In this document: positions 1,946 through 33,420 of the stretch, one piece after another
How positions within the stretch are numbered: position 1 is the stretch's first letter
Layout of the letters: each line of letters starts with the position of its first letter
Assembly (NCBI GenBank): GCA_018268395.1
Contig: JAFDWQ010000008.1
Span: forward strand, 1 to 64,000
Length of the DNA stretch: 64,000 nt
Direction of reading: 5' to 3'
Origin: Armatimonadota bacterium
Lineage (GTDB): Bacteria; Armatimonadota; Fimbriimonadia; Fimbriimonadales; Fimbriimonadaceae
Notes under the pieces: generated by a model
What the model saw: the letters and a program-made list of their open reading frames with translations, nothing else
What the model was told of the DNA's origin: nothing
The model's database searches: none
Program-made: the position numbers and the translations under genes

Positions 1946-2857
1946 GTGGCGGACGGGGCGCGGACGGTTTCGGCGATCTTGAACGTCCGTTCCCGGCGCG
2001 GGGCCGAGTGGGCCAAAACCGCCAAGGCCGCGCTGGAGCAGCACGGCGTCACCGTCCATGACTGGAACGTCTTCCGCAAGACCGACAAGATGGTCGCCCG
2101 CGCGCGCGAGCTCGTCGCGGCCCAGACCCCGATCGTGCTCGTCGGCGGCGGAGACGGCACGCTCGGGGCGGTCGCCAACGTCTTCGCCTCGACCAGCACC
2201 GTGATGGCGGTCCTTCCTGCGGGGACGGGCAACGCCTTCGCGAAAGACCTCGGGATCAAGGCGGACCTGGAAGAGGCGGCGAAGACGGTCGCGACAGGGC
2301 GCGAGGCCCACGTCGACATCGGACAGGTCAACGGCCGTCCGTTCGTCAACGTCGTCACGGTCGGGCTCACGACGCAGATCGCGGAGGGTCTCGACCCGCT
2401 CGCCAAGAAACTGCTCGGCAAGGGCGCGTACGCGTTGGCGGTGCTGCGGGCCTTGCGCGACGTGCGGCCGTTCCAGGTGACGGTCGATGCGGACGGCAAG
2501 CGCGTCCACATGACGACGATGCAGGTCGTCGTCGGGACGGGGCGGTTCCACGGCGGGCCGTTCGTGCTGTCGCCGGACGCCAGCCTCGTGAGCGGCGAGC
2601 TGACGGGCTACGCGGTGCGGGCGAGCAAGAAGTCGGAGCTGCTGCGTTACGCGCTCCTCGTGACGAAGGGGCTGCACGTGGCGTTGCCGGAGGTCGAGTC
2701 GTTCGACGCGGAGAAGATCCGGATCGAGACGACGCCGCCGATGTCGGTGACGGTCGACGGCGAGACGTGCCTGAAGACGCCGGTGGACTGCGCCGTCCTC
2801 CCTCGCGCGTTGCGCGTGCTCGTTCCCGAGGACCAAGAGCTTTCGCCTGTCGATTGA
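1946..2857 (+). CDS. Diacylglycerol/lipid kinase family protein (YegS/DgkA-like)
   Basis: This 303-residue cytoplasmic or membrane-associated lipid kinase probably phosphorylates diacylglycerol or a related lipid with ATP. The DAGK catalytic domain occupies roughly residues 1-130. It has the nucleotide-binding GGGDGTLGAVAN motif and the following PAGTGNAFAKDLG motif, both diagnostic of the family. The C-terminal half is the usual beta-sandwich with a DGE near the end. I chose GTG 1946 because the upstream frame is palindromic repeat and a TACCTT element sits 6 nt before this codon. It stands alone between unlike neighbours. Substrate unknown. Confidence 0.88.
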   Translation: MADGARTVSAILNVRSRRGAEWAKTAKAALEQHGVTVHDWNVFRKTDKMVARARELVAAQTPIVLVGGGDGTLGAVANVFASTSTVMAVLPAGTGNAFAKDLGIKADLEEAAKTVATGREAHVDIGQVNGRPFVNVVTVGLTTQIAEGLDPLAKKLLGKGAYALAVLRALRDVRPFQVTVDADGKRVHMTTMQVVVGTGRFHGGPFVLSPDASLVSGELTGYAVRASKKSELLRYALLVTKGLHVALPEVESFDAEKIRIETTPPMSVTVDGETCLKTPVDCAVLPRALRVLVPEDQELSPVD

Positions 2858-2864
2858 ACAGCCG

Positions 2865-4166
2865 TCAGCCTGCAGGCTTCCGCTGGACCCGCGGCTTCAT
2901 CGCGTCGATGAAGACCACGCCGTCGAACCCGTCCGGCCACACCGTTTCAAGGGTGAAGGGGTTCTGCCTGTCGATGACGGCGGGCAGGGGCTTGCGGAGG
3001 GCGTGCTTCGGGGGGAGGCCCTTGAGGTCCACGAACGAGAGCGCGTGCCCTTGGCGGTGCAAAGCGGCTTCAAGGGTGCCGTCCTTCGCGGTTTCGAACG
3101 TGATCTCGGGATTGCCGAGCCACGACCAGCTTCCCTGGTAGGCCAGGAACCCGATCACGTACGTCCGGTCTTTGCGGTCTCGAGCGAAGAGGCGTCCCAT
3201 CGAGTCCAGATCGCCCGGTCGCGGCGAGCGGCCGACGCCGGAACCGACGCCGGGAAGACCGCGGAAAACGTGGGCGTTGTGCGCCCAGACGACGACCTTC
3301 TTCCCTTTCAGGGGGTTGTCGAGCAACCAAGCTAAGTTGGCCGCGTTCTGGGCCTCTCTGAGGTTGTACGGTCCGGAGATCCCCGTTCCCTTTTCGGCCG
3401 CTTCGCTGTTCAGCCGGAGCATTTCGGCCGCCCGCTCCGTGCTCTTCAAGACCTGCGCCCGGAACGGCGCCCGATCGCCCCACGCCTTGTCCAATGTCTT
3501 CTTTTCTCGTTCGTAGGCGCGGAGGAACCTGGGGGCGGTCGCGTTGACGGCGGCGACGGCGTCGGCCATCGCCTTTTGGGGGTCGGCCGCTTGGCCCGCG
3601 CTTCGCGCCGCCTCGAAAGCGTCTTGGACCGCCTTTCGGTCTTCGGCGGTGAGAGCGGGCGAGCCGTCGAACCATCCGAGGATGTCGGGGAACATCGAGT
3701 AGCCGGCCGTGCCCGAGTTCTGGAGGTCGAAACCGGCCATTCGGAGCGGCCGTTCGGACTTGCGCGTCTGGCGGGCGTACTCGAAGACGGGGAACGACTG
3801 GACGGCCGTCGACCAGTGTCCGAAGACGCCCGACCGTGCGACGTCATCGAGCGGTTTCTTGCCACCGAGCTCGGCGTCCATTTCGGCGCAGTCGTAGAGT
3901 CCTGACTCCCAGATCAGAGCATCGAAACCCATCTCGTCGTGGAAGAACTTGACCAGTTCCGTTTTGACTTCGAACGAGGTGCCGTCGCCGTGGGTCAGTT
4001 CGCCGAGGAAGACCACGCGCGCCCCTCCGACCGCATTGCGGAGGATCGACTTGTCGCCGGGCGAAAGTCGCGTCGAGGACGCAAGCCCGTGGACGGCTTT
4101 GTCCAGATCCAGGTCTCTCCCCGGCGCGGCGAGCACGTACGAAACGGCTATGACCGTGGCCACCAT
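2865..4166 (-). CDS. Erythromycin esterase family protein
   Basis: This 433-residue member of the erythromycin esterase/succinoglycan synthesis family (PF05139 type) carries the signature segments: VVFLGELTHGDG near residue 50, LIWESGLYDC about 35 residues later, and VVWAHNAHVFRG in the second half with its conserved histidines. True family members hydrolyse macrolide lactones, but many are uncharacterised hydrolases, so resistance should not be assumed. The ATG at 4166 gives a hydrophobic N-terminus (MVATVIAVSYVLA) that could be a weak signal peptide. A GTG at 4205 in frame is the alternative. It is transcribed divergently from the thioredoxin gene. Confidence 0.85.
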   Translation of the reverse strand: MVATVIAVSYVLAAPGRDLDLDKAVHGLASSTRLSPGDKSILRNAVGGARVVFLGELTHGDGTSFEVKTELVKFFHDEMGFDALIWESGLYDCAEMDAELGGKKPLDDVARSGVFGHWSTAVQSFPVFEYARQTRKSERPLRMAGFDLQNSGTAGYSMFPDILGWFDGSPALTAEDRKAVQDAFEAARSAGQAADPQKAMADAVAAVNATAPRFLRAYEREKKTLDKAWGDRAPFRAQVLKSTERAAEMLRLNSEAAEKGTGISGPYNLREAQNAANLAWLLDNPLKGKKVVVWAHNAHVFRGLPGVGSGVGRSPRPGDLDSMGRLFARDRKDRTYVIGFLAYQGSWSWLGNPEITFETAKDGTLEAALHRQGHALSFVDLKGLPPKHALRKPLPAVIDRQNPFTLETVWPDGFDGVVFIDAMKPRVQRKPAG

Positions 4167-22081: not shown

Positions 22082-22780
22082 TTAGGGCCGCACGGTCGAG
22101 ACGACAGGCTTATACTTGCTCCCCGTGCTCGAGACCATCGATGCCATCGGTGTCATGACCTTCAATTCGGCCTGGATACCGCCGTTGCAACTCACGAAGT
22201 AGAGCTTGTCCGTCGACGGGCCGGTGACCTGGAAGATGGTCTGCTGGTAGACACGGACGGTGTCGCCAGAGTTGACCTGGAACGTGAACGGTTGTGGACT
22301 GACGGTCGTGTGGCTCAGGCCGATGTACTTGTCTTCATAGAAGACCCGCACCGCGCCGTTGATCGATAGGCCGGACATCGCCCGCATGACGCTGACGTCG
22401 CCAGGAGTGAAGAGCGACGCCGCTCCGACCAAATTCGCCTGCACGGTCACGGGCAGTCCGAGGGGGTGCCGGAACGTCACGTCTTCTTCCGTGCGCGCCT
22501 CGCAATAGGCGTTCGAGAACAGCCCCTCGACCATCACCGAGCCCCGGTGAAATCCGAACCGGACGTCGACATGCCCGACCGCGTAGTCCGTGTTGTTCTC
22601 GCCATGAACGTCGCCCGACCAGTTCTTGATCCCGTTGGTCTGTTCGATCTGTTGGTTGTCGGACGGCCCGAAGAAGATCTGCTCGTTCGCCCTTCCGAAG
22701 AGCTTGTAATATCCGGCGTGGGACGTGACGGCGGTCGCGACGACGATCAGGGCGCCGAGCGCCCGAAAGGTGGTGGTCAT
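22082..22780 (-). CDS. Hypothetical secreted protein
   Basis: This 232-residue protein has a signal peptide (TFRALGALIVVATAVTSHAG), and the mature part looks all-beta. Segments such as GSVMVEGLFSNAYCEA, FTFQVNSGDTVRVYQQTIF and LYFVSCNGGIQAEL suggest a jelly-roll or immunoglobulin-like fold. No family is recognised. The ATG at 22780 is preceded on its strand by a Shine-Dalgarno-like GGGAAGAA, so this gene appears to be leadered. It faces the 46-bp tandem repeat at its 3' end. Confidence 0.6.
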   Translation of the reverse strand: MTTTFRALGALIVVATAVTSHAGYYKLFGRANEQIFFGPSDNQQIEQTNGIKNWSGDVHGENNTDYAVGHVDVRFGFHRGSVMVEGLFSNAYCEARTEEDVTFRHPLGLPVTVQANLVGAASLFTPGDVSVMRAMSGLSINGAVRVFYEDKYIGLSHTTVSPQPFTFQVNSGDTVRVYQQTIFQVTGPSTDKLYFVSCNGGIQAELKVMTPMASMVSSTGSKYKPVVSTVRP

Positions 22781-22959
22781 ATCGTTCTTCCCTCATGGCG
22801 GCGCTCCGTTGCGCCGACCGGAAGCAACGTACCGGTGGATCTCCGCGCTTCACGGGAGGTTGTCCGGACTGTCATCGAACGTTCATCTGCACCTACCGAC
22901 CCGCTCCAGGCGTCTTCCGGCGACGGTCCCGTATCGGCCGGACCGGAGAGAAGGCCGCA

Positions 22960-23157
22960 CTATTGCGGCACGCCGACGATCCAGCGATAGATCACGTAGA
23001 TCCATCCCAGAAGCCCGTGCCACACCGCCCAGCTGATCGAGTGGTTGATCGCCCAAGAGATCTGGACCGCGACAGCGACGCCCACCGAGGTGAACAGCGA
23101 GATCCCCGTGTGCGAGGCCTGCCCGAAACGACGTTCCTTTCGTTCTCCTTCCTTCAT
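22960..23157 (-). CDS. 65-residue membrane protein, copy 1
   Basis: This small protein has a charged N-terminus (KEGERKERRFGQ) followed by two hydrophobic segments (TSVGVAVAVQISWAI and WAVWHGLLGWIYVIYRWIV) separated by NHS. It is nearly identical to the protein at 25624-25821, differing at residues 15 (S/L), 42 (S/G) and 65 (Q/N), whereas the DNA differs mainly at third codon positions. That pattern indicates a real, selected protein. The ATG at 23157 is the equivalent of a GTG in copy 2. The frame upstream to 23310 is not conserved. Function unknown. Confidence 0.75.
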   Translation of the reverse strand: MKEGERKERRFGQASHTGISLFTSVGVAVAVQISWAINHSISWAVWHGLLGWIYVIYRWIVGVPQ

Positions 23158-23344
23158 GGACAGGAATACGCTCTCAGTGGACCTGAGGTTGAGGCGGAGG
23201 ACGCCGGTTCGGGACCGACCGCTACGGAAGCGTGATCTTCGCGTCGCCCCGGGTCGAGCGGACCGAGGCCGGTTCACCGCTATCGACGAAGGCGGCACCA
23301 ATGGCCGCAAAGCCGTTCGACGCGAGAGGTTCCCGGAAAGGCCG

Positions 23345-23665
23345 TTAGCGTTCGGGCCGGCCGAGTTCGTTCGCCCTGTTCTGAAAGTGGAAACCGACCA
23401 GCCAGAATCCGGTCAAGAAGAAGACGACAGAGGCTACGTTCGCAGCCCATCTCCTTTCGCGCTTGAGCCCGACTCCTGCGACGATGAGGACGACACTCAG
23501 AGCGAACGTGACCACTGCCGCGATCGGAATCCGTGCGATCACAGTCCCGAGGCAGAAGACCATGAAGAACGCGCCATAACCGGTGCACAAAAGAAAGTCC
23601 GTGACCGAGTCGGGCCAAAGCTGCCTCTGGAGCGTCTGTATGACGGGGCTCGTCTTCTTTCCCAT
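23345..23665 (-). CDS. Hypothetical membrane protein
   Basis: This 106-residue protein has about three hydrophobic segments (FLLCTGYGAFFMVFCLGTVI, IPIAAVVTFALSVVLIVAGV and VASVVFFLTGFWLVGF) joined by short basic loops such as KRERRW. It has no recognised motif. It lies between the first 65-residue membrane protein and a gene-poor stretch. It could be co-transcribed with copy 1, 187 bp downstream, though nothing proves it. Confidence 0.55.
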   Translation of the reverse strand: MGKKTSPVIQTLQRQLWPDSVTDFLLCTGYGAFFMVFCLGTVIARIPIAAVVTFALSVVLIVAGVGLKRERRWAANVASVVFFLTGFWLVGFHFQNRANELGRPER

Positions 23666-24040
23666 GTGTTAGAGCTCGGACCTCACTTCATCTTACTAAA
23701 ACATCACGACAGTAGTTTCGAAGTCAAGTCGGACCGTCGGCAGATTTCGTAATGCCAGAATCTCCCTTGAGTCCAGATCTGGGATTCGACGCCACTGCGG
23801 CACACCCGTTCGCTGCCTTCACAGTCCATGTCCCACAGACATCCCGTGTTCGCGGACCACAACTGCGGAAGCTAAGGTGCCTCGACTTGAAGCTCCACTC
23901 TCAAGTACTGGGCGGATGGAGTCCGGGCCACGCACGGAGTGTGATGGCTGCGCAGATGGAACCGATGTGATCGGCGGGCCTGTCAGGTCTGCCTGCATCG
24001 CACGAAGAGGTCGTACGCGGTGACTATTCCGTGTTACCAT
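23666..24040. other. Intergenic stretch without recognisable gene
   Basis: This is about 375 bp between a membrane protein gene and the large secreted repeat protein. Short frames here show no start signals or recognisable protein features, and no repeat shared with other parts of the window was noticed. Confidence 0.45.
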
Positions 24041-24067
24041 GGTCTCCGACCCCAGCTACCGGAGACC
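24041..24067 (+). promoter_or_regulatory. Hairpin overlapping the ribosome-binding site of the 24.1-kb gene
   Basis: GGTCTCCG (24041-24048) is exactly complementary to CGGAGACC (24060-24067). The GGAG inside the second arm is the only Shine-Dalgarno-like sequence, 8 nt before the ATG at 24072. A folded leader would hide it. No T-run follows, so this is not a terminator. Confidence 0.55.
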
Positions 24068-24071
24068 CTTA

Positions 24072-25583
24072 ATGCCTCGACCGACGACCGCCGTTCCGCT
24101 GACTCTGGCCTCAATGGCCCTGATCGCCACCGCATGTCTGATCGTAGCCGCCCGCCCTGTGCGCGCCCAGATCGCCGTCGTGCCACCCTTTGTCCAAGTC
24201 CAGCAGACGACGCCAGGCACTCCGCAAAGCGGCCACTCCAACGTCACCGGAACAGCGATCGCCGGACAGTTCAAAGGAGGAGGGGCGGGCCTGACGAACG
24301 TCAACGCCGACCTGCTCGACGGTCTGAACTCCACGGCGTTCCTCCAAGCCGTGCCCAACCCCTTGAACGTGTCCGGCGTTTCGAGCAGTCAGGCCGTCAT
24401 CAAGGGCGCGAACGGGTCGACCGCGCTGGGCTCGAGCGGGGTCTCCGGTGAAGCGAGCGCAGCGACCGGGTCCGTTTACGGAGTCTATGGGACGAGTCCG
24501 AGCACGTCCGGTCGGGGCGTCTTCGGCTGGGCGTCCGCGGCGACCGGGACGACGTACGGCGGACGTTTCGAAAGCGAGAGTTCGTCCGGTCGCGGGATCT
24601 ACGCCCTGGCCGGTTCGTCGACGGGAACGACGTATGGCGGCCGTTTTCAAAGTTCGAGCACCTCGGGCTTCGGCGCCGAAGGGACCGCCACAGCCTCGAC
24701 GGGGTCGACCGTCGGCGTCAAAGGCACGGCCGCTAGCACGACCGGCATCGGAGTCCAGGGAGAAGCCACCGCCGTGACCGGGGCGACGATCGGGGTCTCC
24801 GGCATCGTGGACAGTCCGAGCGGTGCAGCGGTCTTTGGTTCGTCGCTCGCCACGTCCGGAGTCAGTTTTGGAGTCAGAGGCGTGGCCGACAGTTCGTCGG
24901 CCCGTGCCCTTTCCGGGTGGGCCACCTCAACGACCGGGAACTCTTTTGGCGCGATCGCTCAAAGCGACAGCTCGACCGGAAAAGGATTGTACGGCTCGGG
25001 CTTCAGCACCACCGGCGTGAACTATGGCGTCTACGGAAAGTCTTGGAGCCCGAACGGCATCTCGATCTATGCCGAAGGGGACTTCGGCGCGTCCGGAACG
25101 AAGGCCTTCCGTATCGACCATCCCGCCGACCCGGCCCATAGGTACCTGTTCCATTACTCCACCGAAAGCCCGATGCCGCAGAACTTCTATGTCGGCAATG
25201 TCGTGACCGGCGCGGACGGCTACGCCTGGGTCGAACTCCCCTCCTACTTCGCCGACATCAACGCCAACTTCAAGTACCAGTTGACGGTCGTCGACGACGC
25301 GGACGCCGACGGCTTCGTCCTCGCCAAAGTCAGCAAAGAGATCCGAGGCAACCGGTTCCAAATCCGCACCAGCGCGCCTCGGACGAAGGTCTCCTGGCGC
25401 GTCGACGCAGACCGCAACGACCCTTACGTCCGCCACCGAAGACCGAAGACCGAGGTGCAGAAAGTCGGACCGGAAAACGGCACGTACCAGCATCCCGAAC
25501 TTTATGGGCAGCCTGCCGAAAAGGGGGTTTCATACGATGTGGCGCTGCGTTCCGAGGGCGTGCGCAAGACGGGCCGCCCTTAG
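24072..25583 (+). CDS. Large secreted Gly/Ser/Thr repeat protein with conserved C-terminal domain
   Basis: This 503-residue protein has a long signal peptide ending near PVRAQ. Residues 60-330 hold repeats of about 22 residues built on TGxTYGGRFxSxSxSGRGIYG, likely a beta-helix or beta-solenoid. A C-terminal domain starts at GTKAFRIDHPADP and runs through HYSTESP, VELPSYFADIN and TKVSWRVDADRNDPY. This C-terminal domain is familiar from surface proteins of several soil phyla. It is probably exported to the cell surface. The ATG at 24072 is chosen for its Shine-Dalgarno sequence rather than the in-frame codon at 24039. It lies between the two copies of the 65-residue membrane protein. Confidence 0.75.
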   Translation: MPRPTTAVPLTLASMALIATACLIVAARPVRAQIAVVPPFVQVQQTTPGTPQSGHSNVTGTAIAGQFKGGGAGLTNVNADLLDGLNSTAFLQAVPNPLNVSGVSSSQAVIKGANGSTALGSSGVSGEASAATGSVYGVYGTSPSTSGRGVFGWASAATGTTYGGRFESESSSGRGIYALAGSSTGTTYGGRFQSSSTSGFGAEGTATASTGSTVGVKGTAASTTGIGVQGEATAVTGATIGVSGIVDSPSGAAVFGSSLATSGVSFGVRGVADSSSARALSGWATSTTGNSFGAIAQSDSSTGKGLYGSGFSTTGVNYGVYGKSWSPNGISIYAEGDFGASGTKAFRIDHPADPAHRYLFHYSTESPMPQNFYVGNVVTGADGYAWVELPSYFADINANFKYQLTVVDDADADGFVLAKVSKEIRGNRFQIRTSAPRTKVSWRVDADRNDPYVRHRRPKTEVQKVGPENGTYQHPELYGQPAEKGVSYDVALRSEGVRKTGRP

Positions 25584-25623
25584 TAGGGGCGCCCGTCAGG
25601 ATCCCGGACGGAACGACGGCGGC

Positions 25624-25821
25624 TTAGTTCGGCACGCCGACGATCCAGCGATAGATCACGTAGATCCATCCGAGAAGCCCGTGCCACACCGCCCAGCCGA
25701 TCGAGTGGTTGATCGCCCACGAAATCTGCACCGCCACCGCGACACCGACCGACGTGAACAGCGAGATCCCCGTGTGCAAGGCCTGCCCGAACCTCCGCTC
25801 CTTGCGTTCTCCTTCCTTCAC
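25624..25821 (-). CDS. 65-residue membrane protein, copy 2
   Basis: This is a near-identical copy of the protein at 22960-23157, with three substitutions and many synonymous differences. Two predicted membrane segments follow a basic N-terminus. The conserved reading begins at GTG 25821, equivalent to the ATG of copy 1; a TTG at 25827 is also in frame. Both copies face the same way, 2.66 kb apart, and each sits near a secreted protein gene. Function unknown. Confidence 0.75.
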   Translation of the reverse strand: MKEGERKERRFGQALHTGISLFTSVGVAVAVQISWAINHSIGWAVWHGLLGWIYVIYRWIVGVPN

Positions 25822-25895
25822 GGACAAAGTTACGCGTCAAAGGGCAGAAGGGTTGTAGAACTAGACGGACCTGTCGTCTTGCGCGGTGTTGCGCC

Positions 25896-26444
25896 CTAGC
25901 CCGACCCCACGTTCGGCGGCGTGTAACGCATCCTCGTCACACGGAAACGACACGGACCTTCGGTCAACGATTCGAACGCGATGCCGCCGCACGGCTCCGT
26001 GACCGGCACCGTGACGTGTTCGTAGAATCCGCCGTTGTACGTCCGATCGGTCGTATCCAGGAACTCACCCGAAGTGCGCACCGGCCCCGATCGCACCGTT
26101 CCGAATTCGACCACGATCCAATAGTCGAACCGGCTTCCGACGGGCAGGTCGAACGACTGCATGAATCCGCTTCCGAACGATTCGTTCCTCCAAGCGTCGG
26201 TGTCCACGTCGATGCGGTTCTCCCCGGGGAAAACGATCGAGTCGTGCACGCACGTCGTGATCGTGCCGTTGTTCGAGAGGAACTGGACGAAGTGCGCGGC
26301 TGCCGCTTCCACCGAGTCGCCGCGCTGACCGGTCAACATCACACAAGGCTGCGTGATCTGCTTCAGGTTCAGGTTCTTCGGCTTGACGATGGCAGGGTTG
26401 ACGGGCGCCAACAGTGTCGATGCGAGAATGGGGACGAGCACCAT
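25896..26444 (-). CDS. Hypothetical secreted protein
   Basis: This 182-residue protein has a hydrophobic leader (MVLVPILASTLLAPVNPA) and a mature part with several cysteines (QPCVMLTG, TTCVHDS, EPCGG, GPCRFR) and beta-like segments such as FDYWIVVEFGTVRSGP. The cysteines could form disulfides outside the cytoplasm. I do not recognise the family. The ATG at 26444 is preferred to the TTG at 26465 because it begins the signal peptide. It is followed at its 3' side by membrane protein copy 2, on the same strand. Confidence 0.6.
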   Translation of the reverse strand: MVLVPILASTLLAPVNPAIVKPKNLNLKQITQPCVMLTGQRGDSVEAAAAHFVQFLSNNGTITTCVHDSIVFPGENRIDVDTDAWRNESFGSGFMQSFDLPVGSRFDYWIVVEFGTVRSGPVRTSGEFLDTTDRTYNGGFYEHVTVPVTEPCGGIAFESLTEGPCRFRVTRMRYTPPNVGSG

Positions 26445-26544
26445 GTCCGTTTGTGACGGTGCCAAACCGTCGCCTGTTTGGCCCCGACGCTAACTTCGAC
26501 GAACTTATCGTAACGCCAATCTTCCTTGTCGGATAGCACTCCCC

Positions 26545-27566: not shown

Positions 27567-27660
27567 CCGGCTCCTTCGGAACCGGGGTGCAACCGGCACG
27601 ACCATCCGGTTCACCCCGGCCACCCAGGAGGAGGTCAGCCTTGATCAGGCCACTTGCCGG
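27567..27660 (-). repeat. Family-B repeat, left flank of the phosphoesterase/NTPase gene
   Basis: Read on the minus strand, this 94-bp copy aligns along almost its full length with 30903-30994 on the plus strand. Both contain CCTCCTCCTGGGTGGCCGGG and later CACCCCGGTTCCGAAGGA. It ends 9 bp from the stop codon of the gene it flanks, so the two copies form inverted flanks. Confidence 0.85.
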
Positions 27661-27668
27661 ATATTAAT

Positions 27669-30600
27669 TCACTTTTCGCCAGCAAGCCTCGGCTTGAACG
27701 GAGACCCAAAAAGGGCAGGCATGTTCGGGTCTACCTTAACCGCAGCACACAGGGATTGACGGCGATTGTGGGTTGAATCAAATGTCCTCAGATTCGTTAC
27801 CACAACGTTTGTCAGAACATTTCTAGCAATAGGGTTACCATCCAGGTTCTCATAGAATGCGGCTACTGCGGTGTCCTCAATTCTCTTCAGGTCAAGGAGC
27901 AGGCTTGTTCTGATCATCCTTGATGAGACGCTTGTGGCATCGGCCCTCACGCCATAAAGTGTATCAGCGAGGTGGGGAGATGCCAGTGCAAGTGTGGTGC
28001 GTCTGACTATGCCGAAACTACAAACACCCAACAACGTCGATGCGAGTTGGTTCTCCTTAGTCGGGTCAATGTTCACCTTCAGATGCTTTCGCGCCAAGCT
28101 GATAAGTTCACCCTGTCCCTGCTCGACCAGTCCGATGAAGGCTGTCAGGGCCCTCAGCGCTAGGCCGTAGCACTCCTCGGCCAGTCCCTCCCGAATTTCG
28201 AGCTTGATTTTTGTCGAGTAATTGCGTAGAGCCTGTCCGATGATGTTGATCGTATTGAACGCCTCTGACATGCTCTTAATGGTCAGCAAAAGTTGCTCAT
28301 CCAGATCGTCGTCGCTTTCAGCCGAGGTCGAGTGGTGGTGGTCATCCACATCGATCCCTTCATAGATCTCTAGTTCGGATTTCTGCTTGTGCTTGTCAAC
28401 CTGGGCAAAGTCGAACGACGTACTCATGTCGCATTCATCCAGCTTCCCCAGGACTGTATGAGCCTTGGTGATGACCTGCTTCATCAGCCAGGGGCTCCTG
28501 GTCAAGTAGATCGTGAACAGGATCACGTCAGCGCTTTCTTGCTCGTGCAGGGTCTCTACCATTGCCATCAGAATGGCCCGGCCATCCTCTTGCGTGTCCT
28601 CATCACCAAGCATGTCCTTAAGTCGCGTGGCCATGAAGTAATACCGCTGGTATCGCTCACGGAACTTGTAGCCTGAGTCGTCCTGGACGATCATCCTTGC
28701 ACGGTTTAAGACCGCCAGCAACTGTGATCTCTCCAACGGAATCTTCTCTTTGTGGAACAGGGCGATGACTTGGTTGATCTGTTCGTCCGTGACGTAGAAA
28801 GTCCGCTCTAAGTACATCGTGAACGAGAGTTCGGTCAGGAAGTCCATGAGAGCATTGAGCTGTATTTCCTGTGCATCTTTCCCGGCATTCGCCACCCCGT
28901 CAGACAGGTCATTCCGAACCATGCGATCATAGAAGAACCCGAACGCACCGTATTCGGCCGTTGAAGTCTGCTGTGAGATCAAATCACGAACAATGGCCTT
29001 CACGTCACCAGGGAGTGGGGTGACTGTCATCTGACCCAAGATCCCGTCCAAGTTACGTTCAAGCTGGACCAACGCCTCGTTGACTTGAACATCATCTGTG
29101 TAAGCTACCTGGACGTTATGTACCTTTCTGGCGATCTCTTTCTGTTGGGCTCCGTCCAGTGGGAGCATTCTGTAGATTCTGAAGTTGAGGATCGTGTGGT
29201 CCTTGAACGCGGCCCATACGTGACGAAGAACAGACAACTCGTCACCGAAAAGGATGGTCATACCCGATAGAGACTCGATGCTGTTTAAAAGAGTCTTTAG
29301 CTGCTCAGACTTGAGCTTGACTTCCTGGAACTCATCAATCAAGATTGCCCTCTTCTCAATCGGCACTTGGAGGAACTTGGTATCGGCCCCTTCTCCGTAT
29401 TGCTCGACTGCGCGTTTGGCCAGGGCAGCATGTACGCTATCAATTTCTGGTGATCCGAGATCGTGCGGACACAGCACCAGTGGCACCTTGCCCATCGACC
29501 TCAAGTCCGCAAACAGCTTGCGGAGCAAAGTCGTCTTTCCGGACTTACTCTCCCCGACAACCAGCATTCGAGGTTCCGTCGCGAGCTTCGAAATTGCATC
29601 TGAGGCCGGGATAATTCGATCAATTTTCGTCTCATCCTTCGTGACTGTGGTTACTGGCCTCGATTCAACCTGCGGTCCCTTAGCGTTAGCGGCCGTCCTA
29701 TTCCTCACGGGAGTCACGGGGCCAGTTGGCCCCTTACCTTGCTGCTGAGCCCGATGGGTCTCAAAAGTAACATCCCGGAGCTTCGGGTAAACGAAGACAT
29801 CGGCCAAACGGATGGTACCATTAACTCCACCTGTCGACATTCCAGGGTCATCCAGGAAGTCAAGAAACTTGTCTGTGACCATGAAGCCGTCTGTGACACC
29901 GACATCACGGCGCATGTTGAACCAGTCTTGAGCTGCTCCTGGCACGTAACGATTGTCGTGCCAGAGGAAAGTGCTGGTTCGGCGCTGACCAGTATCAAAG
30001 TCAAGTGCAATTGTTGAGAATCCTTGGCTGCCTGGACCCTTGGGCGGGATCAGGGCGTCGGCTTCGAAAAAGATCGTCTCACCGGAAGCCTTGGAGTGCC
30101 TGACGTACTCTTGGCCATCGTGCTCGTGTCCGGAGAGAACCAAATCTGAAAACCCCTGCAAATGCTTCTGAATGCCCCTGCCGTTCTCAATCTTCAACCA
30201 ATTCCAAGGATGGTGCATTAGGCAGATCCGAAACGATCCATCAGTTACGCTCAAATCCTCGGGCCAGTAGCTGCTCAAGAGACCTTGATCATGTTCATCC
30301 AAGCAGGCAAAGGATGTATTCAGACACACGATCTCAAGATTTGCGTTGTCAATTTTGAATGTCCGCACCCAGCTTAGTTTCTCAGTGACAGAGTCACTTG
30401 ATCGTCCAGTTCGCGCCTTCTCGAACTCAAAGAACTTTGCCTGCGCTTCTAAGGCAATCGCAACCTCGACCGAGCCGGGCCCAAGTAAGTTCCTGGGATG
30501 TCGGAGGTTGGTCAGAGCGGTCGTGAGCCCAAATAGATCCTTCGCGTCCTCGGGCCGCGTTATGTCGTGGTTCCCTGGAACGTAAATCTCACCCAAATAC

Positions 30601-30842
30601 TCGATATTGGGTTGAAACGTCTTGAGAGAATCCTGAAGATCTGCGAAGAACATTTCCACCCAGGAGTAACCTTCGGGATCCCCCTTGTCCGTAAGATCTC
30701 CGGTGACCAAACAAAGGACGGCTCCGACTCCGGGAATATCACCCAAAGCAGCCTTGGCAATCTCTGGTGCACGTTGGATTGCGGCGTTCGTACCAGCGCC
30801 ATCAAAGTGAAGGTCGCTGAGGTGAAGTAGCAAGATTCTCAA
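27669..30842 (-). CDS. Metallophosphoesterase/STAND-type P-loop NTPase fusion, candidate defence protein
   Basis: This 1057-residue protein has all calcineurin-like phosphoesterase motifs in residues 1-300: DLH (10-12), GDLTD (48-52), GNHD (90-93), HH (210-211) and GHEHD (238-242). A linker leads to a P-loop NTPase with Walker A GESKSGKT (430-437) and Walker B ILIDEF (500-505), then about 500 residues of helical C-terminus with an acidic His-rich patch (DVDDHHHSTSAESDDD). This effector-NTPase-sensor order is that of STAND immune ATPases. I infer that the phosphoesterase attacks nucleic acid or nucleotides on triggering. The start is TTG 30842 with GGGGGA about 8 nt upstream. The base composition is visibly lower in GC than its neighbours, and inverted family-B repeats flank it. 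Confidence 0.82.
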   Translation of the reverse strand: MRILLLHLSDLHFDGAGTNAAIQRAPEIAKAALGDIPGVGAVLCLVTGDLTDKGDPEGYSWVEMFFADLQDSLKTFQPNIEYLGEIYVPGNHDITRPEDAKDLFGLTTALTNLRHPRNLLGPGSVEVAIALEAQAKFFEFEKARTGRSSDSVTEKLSWVRTFKIDNANLEIVCLNTSFACLDEHDQGLLSSYWPEDLSVTDGSFRICLMHHPWNWLKIENGRGIQKHLQGFSDLVLSGHEHDGQEYVRHSKASGETIFFEADALIPPKGPGSQGFSTIALDFDTGQRRTSTFLWHDNRYVPGAAQDWFNMRRDVGVTDGFMVTDKFLDFLDDPGMSTGGVNGTIRLADVFVYPKLRDVTFETHRAQQQGKGPTGPVTPVRNRTAANAKGPQVESRPVTTVTKDETKIDRIIPASDAISKLATEPRMLVVGESKSGKTTLLRKLFADLRSMGKVPLVLCPHDLGSPEIDSVHAALAKRAVEQYGEGADTKFLQVPIEKRAILIDEFQEVKLKSEQLKTLLNSIESLSGMTILFGDELSVLRHVWAAFKDHTILNFRIYRMLPLDGAQQKEIARKVHNVQVAYTDDVQVNEALVQLERNLDGILGQMTVTPLPGDVKAIVRDLISQQTSTAEYGAFGFFYDRMVRNDLSDGVANAGKDAQEIQLNALMDFLTELSFTMYLERTFYVTDEQINQVIALFHKEKIPLERSQLLAVLNRARMIVQDDSGYKFRERYQRYYFMATRLKDMLGDEDTQEDGRAILMAMVETLHEQESADVILFTIYLTRSPWLMKQVITKAHTVLGKLDECDMSTSFDFAQVDKHKQKSELEIYEGIDVDDHHHSTSAESDDDLDEQLLLTIKSMSEAFNTINIIGQALRNYSTKIKLEIREGLAEECYGLALRALTAFIGLVEQGQGELISLARKHLKVNIDPTKENQLASTLLGVCSFGIVRRTTLALASPHLADTLYGVRADATSVSSRMIRTSLLLDLKRIEDTAVAAFYENLDGNPIARNVLTNVVVTNLRTFDSTHNRRQSLCAAVKVDPNMPALFGSPFKPRLAGEK

Positions 30843-30902
30843 TGTAGCGTCCCCCAAGAGATGAACGTGGTTTTGCAGCCCGTGTACTCCAGCCACAAGC
30901 TT

Positions 30903-30994
30903 GCGGCGGGTGGCCCGACCATGGGTAACCTCCTCCTGGGTGGCCGGGGTGATCCGGACGACCGTGCCGGTTCACCCCGGTTCCGAAGGAACGT
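30903..30994 (+). repeat. Family-B repeat, right flank of the phosphoesterase/NTPase gene
   Basis: This is the plus-strand copy of the element at 27567-27660, lying 61 bp upstream of the gene start. The gap 30843-31370 contains this copy, a family-A half-element at 31130-31159 and another partial copy at 31225-31285, and no recognisable gene. Confidence 0.85.
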
Positions 30995-31886: not shown

Positions 31887-31971
31887 GGCGGACCCTGCCG
31901 AGGGCGTTTTCGAGCCCCGAAACCTGGTCTCAGGTTCAAACGCGCCCCGCGGGAAGGTTTTTCTTTGAAGC

Positions 31972-32160
31972 AATGGAGCTTCGCTTCAAAGCGAGAGAGC
32001 TTCGCTTCAAAGCAATGGAGCTTCGCTTCAAAGCAATGGAGCTTCGCTTCAAAGCAATGGAGCTTCGCTTCATAGCAATGGAGCGTCGCTTCAAAGCAAT
32101 GGAGCTTCGCTTCAAAGCGGGAGAGCTTCGCTTCAAAGCGGGAGAGCTTCGCTTCAAAGC
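31972..32160 (+). repeat. 21-bp tandem repeat, nine copies
   Basis: Nine consecutive 21-bp units consist of a variable three bases plus GGAGCTTCGCTTCAAAGC or a one-base variant. The period is a multiple of three, so one plus-strand frame reads a heptad MELRFKA over and over, and the minus strand reads CFEAKLH or RFEAKLS. No upstream start or gene supports translation. Each unit contains GCTTCGCTTCAAAGC, whose ends are complementary (GCTT/AAGC). Confidence 0.92.
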
Positions 32161-32197
32161 AAGGACTCTGCGCGGAAGAGCGCATGTCTTTCGGCCA

Positions 32198-33420
32198 CGT
32201 CATCCCGACCGACCGAAGGGAGCGGAGGGACCTCCCTTTGTGCGCTGCCAACGGAAGACGGAGATCCCTCGGCTTCGCTCGGGGTGACATGATCGGTGTC
32301 CGGGCTCCCTCACTGAAGAACGCGTCGTCCTGACCGTCCGCAGTGCTTGGAGGGACCCCCCGTTCCCAATCGTTTGCAGGGATCGGAGGTCCCTCGACTT
32401 CGCTCGGGATGACGTGATCTGAAGGTACTGGGCAACGTACAGGACGCCGTGATCAGGTTCTGCCGCAGCCTCAGAGGCACGTCATCCCGACCGACCGCAG
32501 GGAGCGGAGGGACCTCCCTTTTGCTGCACCGACTTTCGGAGGTCCCTCGACTTCGCTCGGGATGACATGATCAGTGTTTGGGCTCCCTCACTTAAGGTCG
32601 CGTCATCCCGACCGACCGAAGGGAGCGGAGGGACCTCCCTTTGTGCGCTGCCAACGGGATCCGGAGGTCCCTCGACTTCGCTCGGGATGACGTGATCAGA
32701 GTTTGAGCCCCCTCACTTAGGGTCGCGTCATCCCGACCGACTTCAGGGAGCGGAGGGGCCTCCGGAAGGTAGCCTGATCGATCGGTAGAAAGCCGCGGTC
32801 TTACGTTTACATCCTTGCGAGCTCATCGGGGACGCTGTACACGGGCGTGACCACCGATATCGTCGGCCGCGTCTGGCAGCACAAGACCGGCGAGTTCGAA
32901 GGCTTCAGCAAGAAGTATCGCTGCAACAAGCTCGTGTGGTCCGAGGAGTTCACCGACGTGACCGAAGCCATCGCAAGAGAAAAGCAGATCAAGAATTGGA
33001 GGCGCGAAAAGAAGGTCAGGCTCGTGGAGTCGTCGAACCCTGACTGGAGAGATTTAGCGGCGGATTGGTACGGCGGTTCTTTCGACTCAGCGTCCGGCTA
33101 GCTACCCGGAGGTCCCTCGACTTCGCTCGGGATGACGCGATCTGGTTTTGTCGCTTCACCCTTGTAGATACGTCATCCCGACCGACCGCAGGGAGCGGAG
33201 GGACCTCTCATTCCCTTTAGTTTGCAGAACCCCGGAGGTCCCTCGACTTCGCTCGGGATGACGAATCTGAGAGTCCTCGGCTTCGCTCGGGATGACGTGA
33301 CCAGGGTTCGCCCCACACCCCATGCGCCACGTCATCCCGACCGACCGAAGGGAACGGAGGGACCCCCTTTACCTCCTCCCGCCTTTCGGAGGTCCCTCGA
33401 CTTCGCTCGGGATGACGTGC
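32198..33420. repeat. Ordered array of palindromic family-A half-elements
   Basis: Half-element A (CGTCATCCCGA...GGGACCTCC type) starts near 32198, 32322 (degenerate), 32480, 32601, 32726, 33171 and 33331. Half-element B (GGAGGTCCCTCGACTTCGC...) starts near 32258, 32385, 32538, 32663, 33109, 33233 and 33388, with a partial near 33274. Apart from that partial the order strictly alternates A, B, A, B. B-to-A gaps are usually about 33 nt and share TGATCAG...CTCCCTCACTT. A-to-B gaps are 17-24 nt, except one of about 345 nt that contains the GIY-YIG frame. No other gene is present. Confidence 0.9.
32778..33101 (+). CDS. GIY-YIG nuclease-domain protein without a canonical start
   Basis: The open frame after a TGA at 32775-32777 encodes about 107 residues with the whole GIY-YIG domain: YVYILASSSGTLYTGVT, then VGRVWQHK, KLVWSEEF, AIAREKQIKNWRREKKVRLVE and the terminal NPDWRDLAADW. 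The GIY (here YVY) and YIG (LYTG) motifs lie before the first ATG/GTG/TTG, a GTG at 32847 that would remove the active-site strand. A functional product would need an unusual codon such as ATC 32781, which has GGAAGG 11 nt upstream. Otherwise the gene is 5'-truncated. It sits inside the palindrome array between an A and a B half-element. Confidence 0.7.
   Translation, partial: SIGRKPRSYVYILASSSGTLYTGVTTDIVGRVWQHKTGEFEGFSKKYRCNKLVWSEEFTDVTEAIAREKQIKNWRREKKVRLVESSNPDWRDLAADWYGGSFDSASG

What the first reader, a model, noticed from the sequence alone, without database searches (positions are those of the whole stretch)
22960..25821. Duplicated 65-residue membrane protein with strong purifying selection
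The two copies, 2.66 kb apart in the same orientation, differ at three residues after the start codon while carrying many synonymous base differences. Selection has therefore acted on the protein over a long period, or gene conversion is homogenising it. The sequence KERRFGQ then WHGLLGWIYVIYRW matches no family I recognise.
Basis: seen in the sequence. Interest (0 to 1): 0.55.

Follow-up and report, generated by a model that had tools for sequence, protein, structure and literature searches.

The report
Widespread uncharacterised small membrane protein
Two near-identical 65-residue predicted membrane proteins in this bacterium belong to a strongly conserved family of roughly 50-residue hairpins, also found in other bacterial phyla and in virus sequences, whose job is unknown.

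Summary
Two 65-codon minus-strand genes (22960-23157, ATG; 25624-25821, GTG) differ at 3 residues after the start but at 13 synonymous codons (dN/dS about 0.1). Similarity ends close to the gene ends. Synonymous differences crowd into codons 2-34 (12 of 32, against 1 of 24 later), suggesting an old pair partly homogenised by gene conversion; the tests of this are mixed.

The protein is not genome-specific. Relatives occur in 13 of 291 Armatimonadota genomes (host's own included), in large replicons of five genera of Bacillota and Pseudomonadota, and in 89 IMG/VR contigs. One contig appears to read TGA as glycine, exactly at two conserved glycines. Pfam, NCBIfam, PHROGs, PADLOC and PDB sequences gave no credible match for the members scanned. 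G26, S34 and W52 are in 79 of 79 aligned rows. AlphaFold2 gives a helical hairpin, low to moderate confidence. No neighbour gene family recurs in more than 6 of 67 viral loci.

Most likely a free-standing two-helix membrane protein working by specific helix packing with itself or a membrane partner, carried by phages as an accessory gene. Coding and selection are shown; the mechanism is inferred.

The parts
22960..23157 (-). copy A, 65 aa, ATG start
   Evidence: profile match E = 3.1e-19
25624..25821 (-). copy B, 65 aa, GTG start (an in-frame TTG lies two codons upstream)
   Evidence: profile match E = 1.8e-19
23050..23100 (-). copy A predicted helix 1 (residues 20-36), with G26, A30, S34
   Evidence: AlphaFold2 model, low confidence; conservation
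22975..23034 (-). copy A predicted helix 2 (residues 42-61), with W43, H47, W52, Y54, Y57
   Evidence: AlphaFold2 model, low confidence; conservation

Best explanation
The two ORFs are real paralogous genes for a small membrane protein of two helices joined by a short turn. SHOWN by sequence: protein-level selection in the pair, and a family with near-invariant residues in Armatimonadota, Bacillota, Pseudomonadota and viral contigs. PREDICTED: helices at residues 20-36 and 42-61. INFERRED: small residues spaced four apart in helix 1 (G26, A30, S34) allow tight helix packing, and W43, H47, W52, Y54 and Y57 of helix 2 make a specific contact. The protein then works as a stoichiometric membrane adaptor or self-assembling subunit, binding itself or a conserved membrane partner, and is not a non-specific membrane disrupter. 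As a free-standing gene without fixed neighbours it can be carried by phages and bacteria as a one-gene accessory. In this genome the second copy is a duplicate, or a second arrival from the same source, later partly homogenised with the first.
For: dN/dS about 0.1 between the copies. The N-terminal tail, codons 2-14, lies outside the family core yet has 4 synonymous and no amino-acid differences. Relatives: 13 of 291 phylum genomes, seven plasmid records of five genera, 89 viral contigs by hand count of the listings. A terminase domain is in 13 of 45 of those viral records, 10 over the cut-off, so tailed phages carry it. In one contig the gene is open only if TGA is read, and two TGA codons fall at G26 and G48; the longest open frame there rises from 140 to 475 codons when TGA is read and stays at 140 when TAG is read. 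Alignment of 79 rows: G26, S34, W52 in 79; A30, Y54, Y57 in 78; S40, W43, V55 in 77; H47 in 74 (one contig is in twice). Helices in both models. That small residues four apart favour helix packing is recalled knowledge.
Against: Model confidence is low (mean pLDDT 65 and 70, pTM 0.30 and 0.43), and the second model breaks helix 2 in two. Conservation is not significantly confined to one face of either helix (p = 0.13 and 0.19). No partner, expression or peptide evidence. I see no Shine-Dalgarno-like stretch just before either start, and no sigma-70-like site on the minus strand of 22780-26500. Charges hardly fix the topology (mean N tail +0.48, turn +0.29, C tail +0.63). One orthologue, in G017, has an in-frame TGA, so the gene can be lost. 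It is absent from the three other genomes of the genus.
Confidence: 0.45

Rival explanations
1. A holin-like or pore-forming protein of phage origin: two-helix hairpins assemble into holes; the bacterial copies are domesticated or prophage remnants.
For: Size, predicted hairpin, presence in viral contigs with terminase.
Against: No holin model matches except one member to one PHROG at E = 0.93. The listed neighbour families of 130 adjacent proteins include no endolysin or holin, only three tail-lysozyme entries, but the lists are cut at 25 of 61 and 25 of 131 families. Amidase_2 is in 2 of 45 records, about 75 kb and 141 kb from the gene, the second below cut-off; no other endolysin family was searched for by itself. 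Residue conservation is stronger than I expect of holins (recalled).
Confidence: 0.15
2. A phage exclusion or immunity protein in the membrane: it sits on a conserved entry or envelope factor and blocks a second phage; bacteria keep it as a defence.
For: Viral and patchy bacterial distribution, stand-alone gene. A candidate defence gene lies 1.9 kb beyond copy B, but other genes lie between.
Against: No match to a PADLOC model; Imm_superinfect is not among Pfam matches at E <= 1. No match in 50,697 cultured phage records with three queries.
Confidence: 0.2
3. A small hydrophobic toxin, of the type I toxin-antitoxin sort.
For: Small, hydrophobic, present as a nearby pair.
Against: Strong residue identity across phyla, and only 1 strong match in each of 10 records searched; no PADLOC match. 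No antisense RNA was looked for beyond Rfam, which found none in the window.
Confidence: 0.07
4. Not a gene: chance open frames.
For: Short, no obvious ribosome-binding site, no annotation.
Against: dN/dS, homologues, and TGA-for-glycine at conserved sites.
Confidence: 0.02

Closest known systems
Unnamed 'hypothetical protein' entries WP_166796068.1, WP_010553058.1, WP_007378675.1, WP_010779132.1
   Same: Same family by sequence, 47 to 58 residues, same core.
   Different: No function or family model; they lack the charged N-terminal tail of the window copies.
Two-helix (class II) holins such as phage 21 S (recalled)
   Same: Small, two helices, phage-borne.
   Different: No credible family match and no endolysin found nearby.
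Superinfection immunity membrane proteins, Pfam Imm_superinfect and T4 Imm (recalled)
   Same: Small membrane proteins known from phages.
   Different: Not among the Pfam matches at E <= 1 for 28 members.
Anonymous small-protein families in GMSC (PMC11364881), sORFdb (PMC11796252; passages of both seen) and the surveys of Fremin 2022 and Sberro 2019 (seen only as cited in PMC11364881)
   Same: Same kind of object: conserved small proteins, mostly without known function.
   Different: Their sequence files could not be read here, so whether this family is already among their clusters is unknown.

Membership tests
Holins (Pfam, PHROGs) | match to a holin family model | tested here: not met
   28 members scanned: no Pfam holin; one member to PHROG 1129 (holin) at E = 0.93
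Holins (Pfam, PHROGs) | gene beside an endolysin in phage genomes | tested here: inconclusive
   None in the capped family lists of 130 neighbours; Amidase_2 in 2 of 45 records and far away; other endolysin families not searched singly
Holins (Pfam, PHROGs) | one to three transmembrane helices | tested here: inconclusive
   helical hairpin predicted at low to moderate confidence
Superinfection immunity (Imm_superinfect) | match to the Pfam model | tested here: not met
   not among Pfam matches at E <= 1
Superinfection immunity (Imm_superinfect) | blocks entry of a second phage | not testable with these tools
   needs a plating assay
Family defined here: G-x3-A-x3-S, then S-x2-W-x3-H-x4-W-x-Y-V-I-Y | profile match over the core | tested here: met
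   E = 1.8e-19 (B) and 3.1e-19 (A) with A4; both copies are rows of A4, so this is by construction; relatives found by single-sequence searches are independent
Family defined here: G-x3-A-x3-S, then S-x2-W-x3-H-x4-W-x-Y-V-I-Y | the ten most conserved residues | tested here: met
   G26, A30, S34, S40, W43, H47, W52, Y54, V55, Y57 present in both copies

The most novel reading that the evidence does not exclude
A family of stand-alone, roughly 50-residue hairpins with a fixed set of small, polar and aromatic residues inside the membrane, spread over several phyla and their phages (one of them with TGA read as glycine), acts on one universal membrane target, so that phages and bacteria independently keep a one-gene modulator of it.
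Probability: 0.25. Interest if true: 0.8.

Novelty: new member of a known kind. Interest (0 to 1): 0.45.

Why it matters
Small membrane proteins are under-annotated. This one has residue conservation that survives across phyla, viral genomes and apparently a change of genetic code, yet no model in the four curated libraries scanned. A profile such as A4 would annotate it, and the invariant residues give direct mutants to test. The pair in this genome is a natural case of two copies partly kept alike.

Tried and rejected
Family libraries: Pfam, NCBIfam, PHROGs and PADLOC gave nothing credible for the window copies, nor the first three for 28 members (the best stray hits, each in one or two members, were Pfam E = 0.023 and PHROG E = 0.011). 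PDB by sequence: best E = 0.22 and 0.91. Papers: eight-letter motif words in 0 papers, four accession numbers in 0 papers, 'Fimbriimonadales' with 'small protein' in 0 papers. Cultured phages: 0 of 50,697 records with three queries, a result against a common phage gene, though the collection leans to few hosts (recalled).

Mobile cassette: in G020 and G044 the gene lies just upstream of a tRNA, with a phage-type integrase beyond it. I considered an integron cassette or integrative element; the gene lies on the far side of the tRNA and no shared flank was seen among the orthologues, so I dropped the idea. Conserved neighbours: in 67 viral loci (80 less 13 near-duplicates) the most recurrent neighbour cluster is in 6 loci. 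Structure search was not run because the models are of low confidence.

Rows left out: A4 holds 79 rows; I left out 26 of 80 loci (near-duplicates, contigs seen already, truncated or divergent ones, and L118 with in-frame TGA), the G017 orthologue (in-frame TGA), and the two order-level hits G077 and G081. One contig is in A4 twice (L042, L112). Viral start codons were chosen by a simple rule.

Full report
OBSERVATION. The window carries two 65-codon genes on the minus strand, copy A at 22960-23157 and copy B at 25624-25821. They differ at S15L, S42G and Q65N, at the start codon (ATG, GTG) and the stop codon (TAG, TAA), and at 13 synonymous codons. Counting sites gives dS 0.35 and dN 0.035, Fisher p = 7e-6. 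The DNA alignment reaches only 5 bases before the start and 22 past the stop. The N-terminal tail (codons 2-14), which is not part of the family core, has 4 synonymous and no amino-acid differences, which supports translation from the first codon.

SELECTION OR CONVERSION. Of 56 codons that keep a degenerate residue, 12 of 32 differ in codons 2-34 and 1 of 24 later (Fisher p = 0.004, breakpoint chosen after looking). A max-chi2 test that allows for the choice gives p = 0.04; the same test on all bases gives 0.27 and the longest identical run 0.37. Against five orthologues from other genomes of the family, A and B show no such drop: last 27 codons 6.3 to 10.5 synonymous differences against 1 between A and B. 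I read this as a pair old enough for its first half to look like genes of different genera, with the second half homogenised. It is suggestive, not proven.

HOST AND DISTRIBUTION. The genome has 3.72 Mb in 15 contigs and two copies, no more. With profile A1, 7 of 85 genomes of the family match, none of the three other genomes of the genus. With A4, 13 of 291 genomes of the phylum match at E <= 0.001. Apart from the window genome none of these 13 lists more than one match. Outside the phylum: plasmid or chromid records of Subdoligranulum, Methylocella (2), Pseudoalteromonas (2), Jeotgalibacillus and Enterococcus gilvus. Viral contigs: 14, 80 and 80 loci kept, together 89 contigs by hand count. 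Of 45 of these records 13 have a Terminase_6N match, 10 above cut-off. No cultured phage record matched.

A CHANGED CODE. In viral contig locus L118 the gene is broken by TGA under the standard code. Read as glycine (NCBI table 25) the frame gives the family core, and the two TGA codons inside it fall at the positions of G26 and G48. In that 8,586-base locus the longest open frames rise from 140 to 475 codons when TGA is read, not when TAG is read; three control loci barely change. This points to a virus of a TGA-recoding host and is independent evidence that the protein is what is conserved. The host group is inferred from the code, recalled.

THE PROTEIN. In the 79-row alignment A4 the tail varies and the core is fixed: G26, S34, W52 in all rows; A30, Y54, Y57 in 78; S40, W43, V55 in 77; H47 in 74; I56 and G48 in 70. 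AlphaFold2 gives helices 20-36 and 42-61 for copy A (pLDDT 65, pTM 0.30) and 12-25, 28-36, 38-49 for a viral member (pLDDT 70, pTM 0.43). G26, A30 and S34 are four apart. Conservation is not significantly one-sided on either helix (p = 0.13, 0.19).

NEIGHBOURS. Copy A lies between two unrelated minus-strand genes, copy B between a secreted repetitive protein (24039-25583, +) and another minus-strand gene. Orthologues in other genera have other neighbours. In 67 viral loci the nearest genes are mostly on the same strand (51 upstream, 55 downstream), and the commonest neighbour cluster is in 6 loci. Among 130 nearest neighbours Pfam and PHROGs show scattered phage functions: terminase small subunit, DNA methylases, ligases, baseplate hubs (lists capped). 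The gene is therefore free-standing, and context gives no function.

MECHANISM. Fixed small and aromatic residues inside predicted membrane helices, at this level across phyla, argue for specific packing with itself or a conserved partner more than for membrane disruption. Holin, exclusion and toxin readings are kept as rivals. This step is inference.

NOVELTY. Curated libraries lack it, individual members are in RefSeq as hypothetical proteins, and large small-protein catalogues (PMC11364881, PMC11796252; passages seen) may hold it unnamed. It is a new family of a known kind.

Noticed in passing
L118 5899-6150 (viral contig IMGVR_UViG_3300033143_002801): TGA appears to be read as glycine; open frames lengthen only when TGA is read.
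   Followed up: partly
window 27669-30896: 1075-aa metallophosphoesterase plus STAND-type NTPase, PADLOC candidate defence PDC-S60 at E = 5e-40, in a GC dip (0.527) and bracketed by a 69-nt inverted repeat at 27591-27659 and 30904-30972.
   Followed up: partly
window 27572-27659: One copy of a dispersed repeat of about 90 bases with many copies over the genome and some in the genus.
   Followed up: no
window 31927-33420: 21-nt tandem repeats and dispersed 41- to 58-nt repeats.
   Followed up: no
window 25068-25513: The 3' part of the secreted repetitive gene 24039-25583 has similar DNA at many places in the genome and in two other genomes of the genus.
   Followed up: no
L008 1581-1583 region (G017): The orthologue in G017 has an in-frame TGA at the codon of W35: pseudogene or sequencing error.
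   Followed up: no
L154 2856-5168 (G226): The small gene follows a run with a DUF2752 protein (L154 3887-4297) and, by motif only, a second one at 2856-3239.
   Followed up: no
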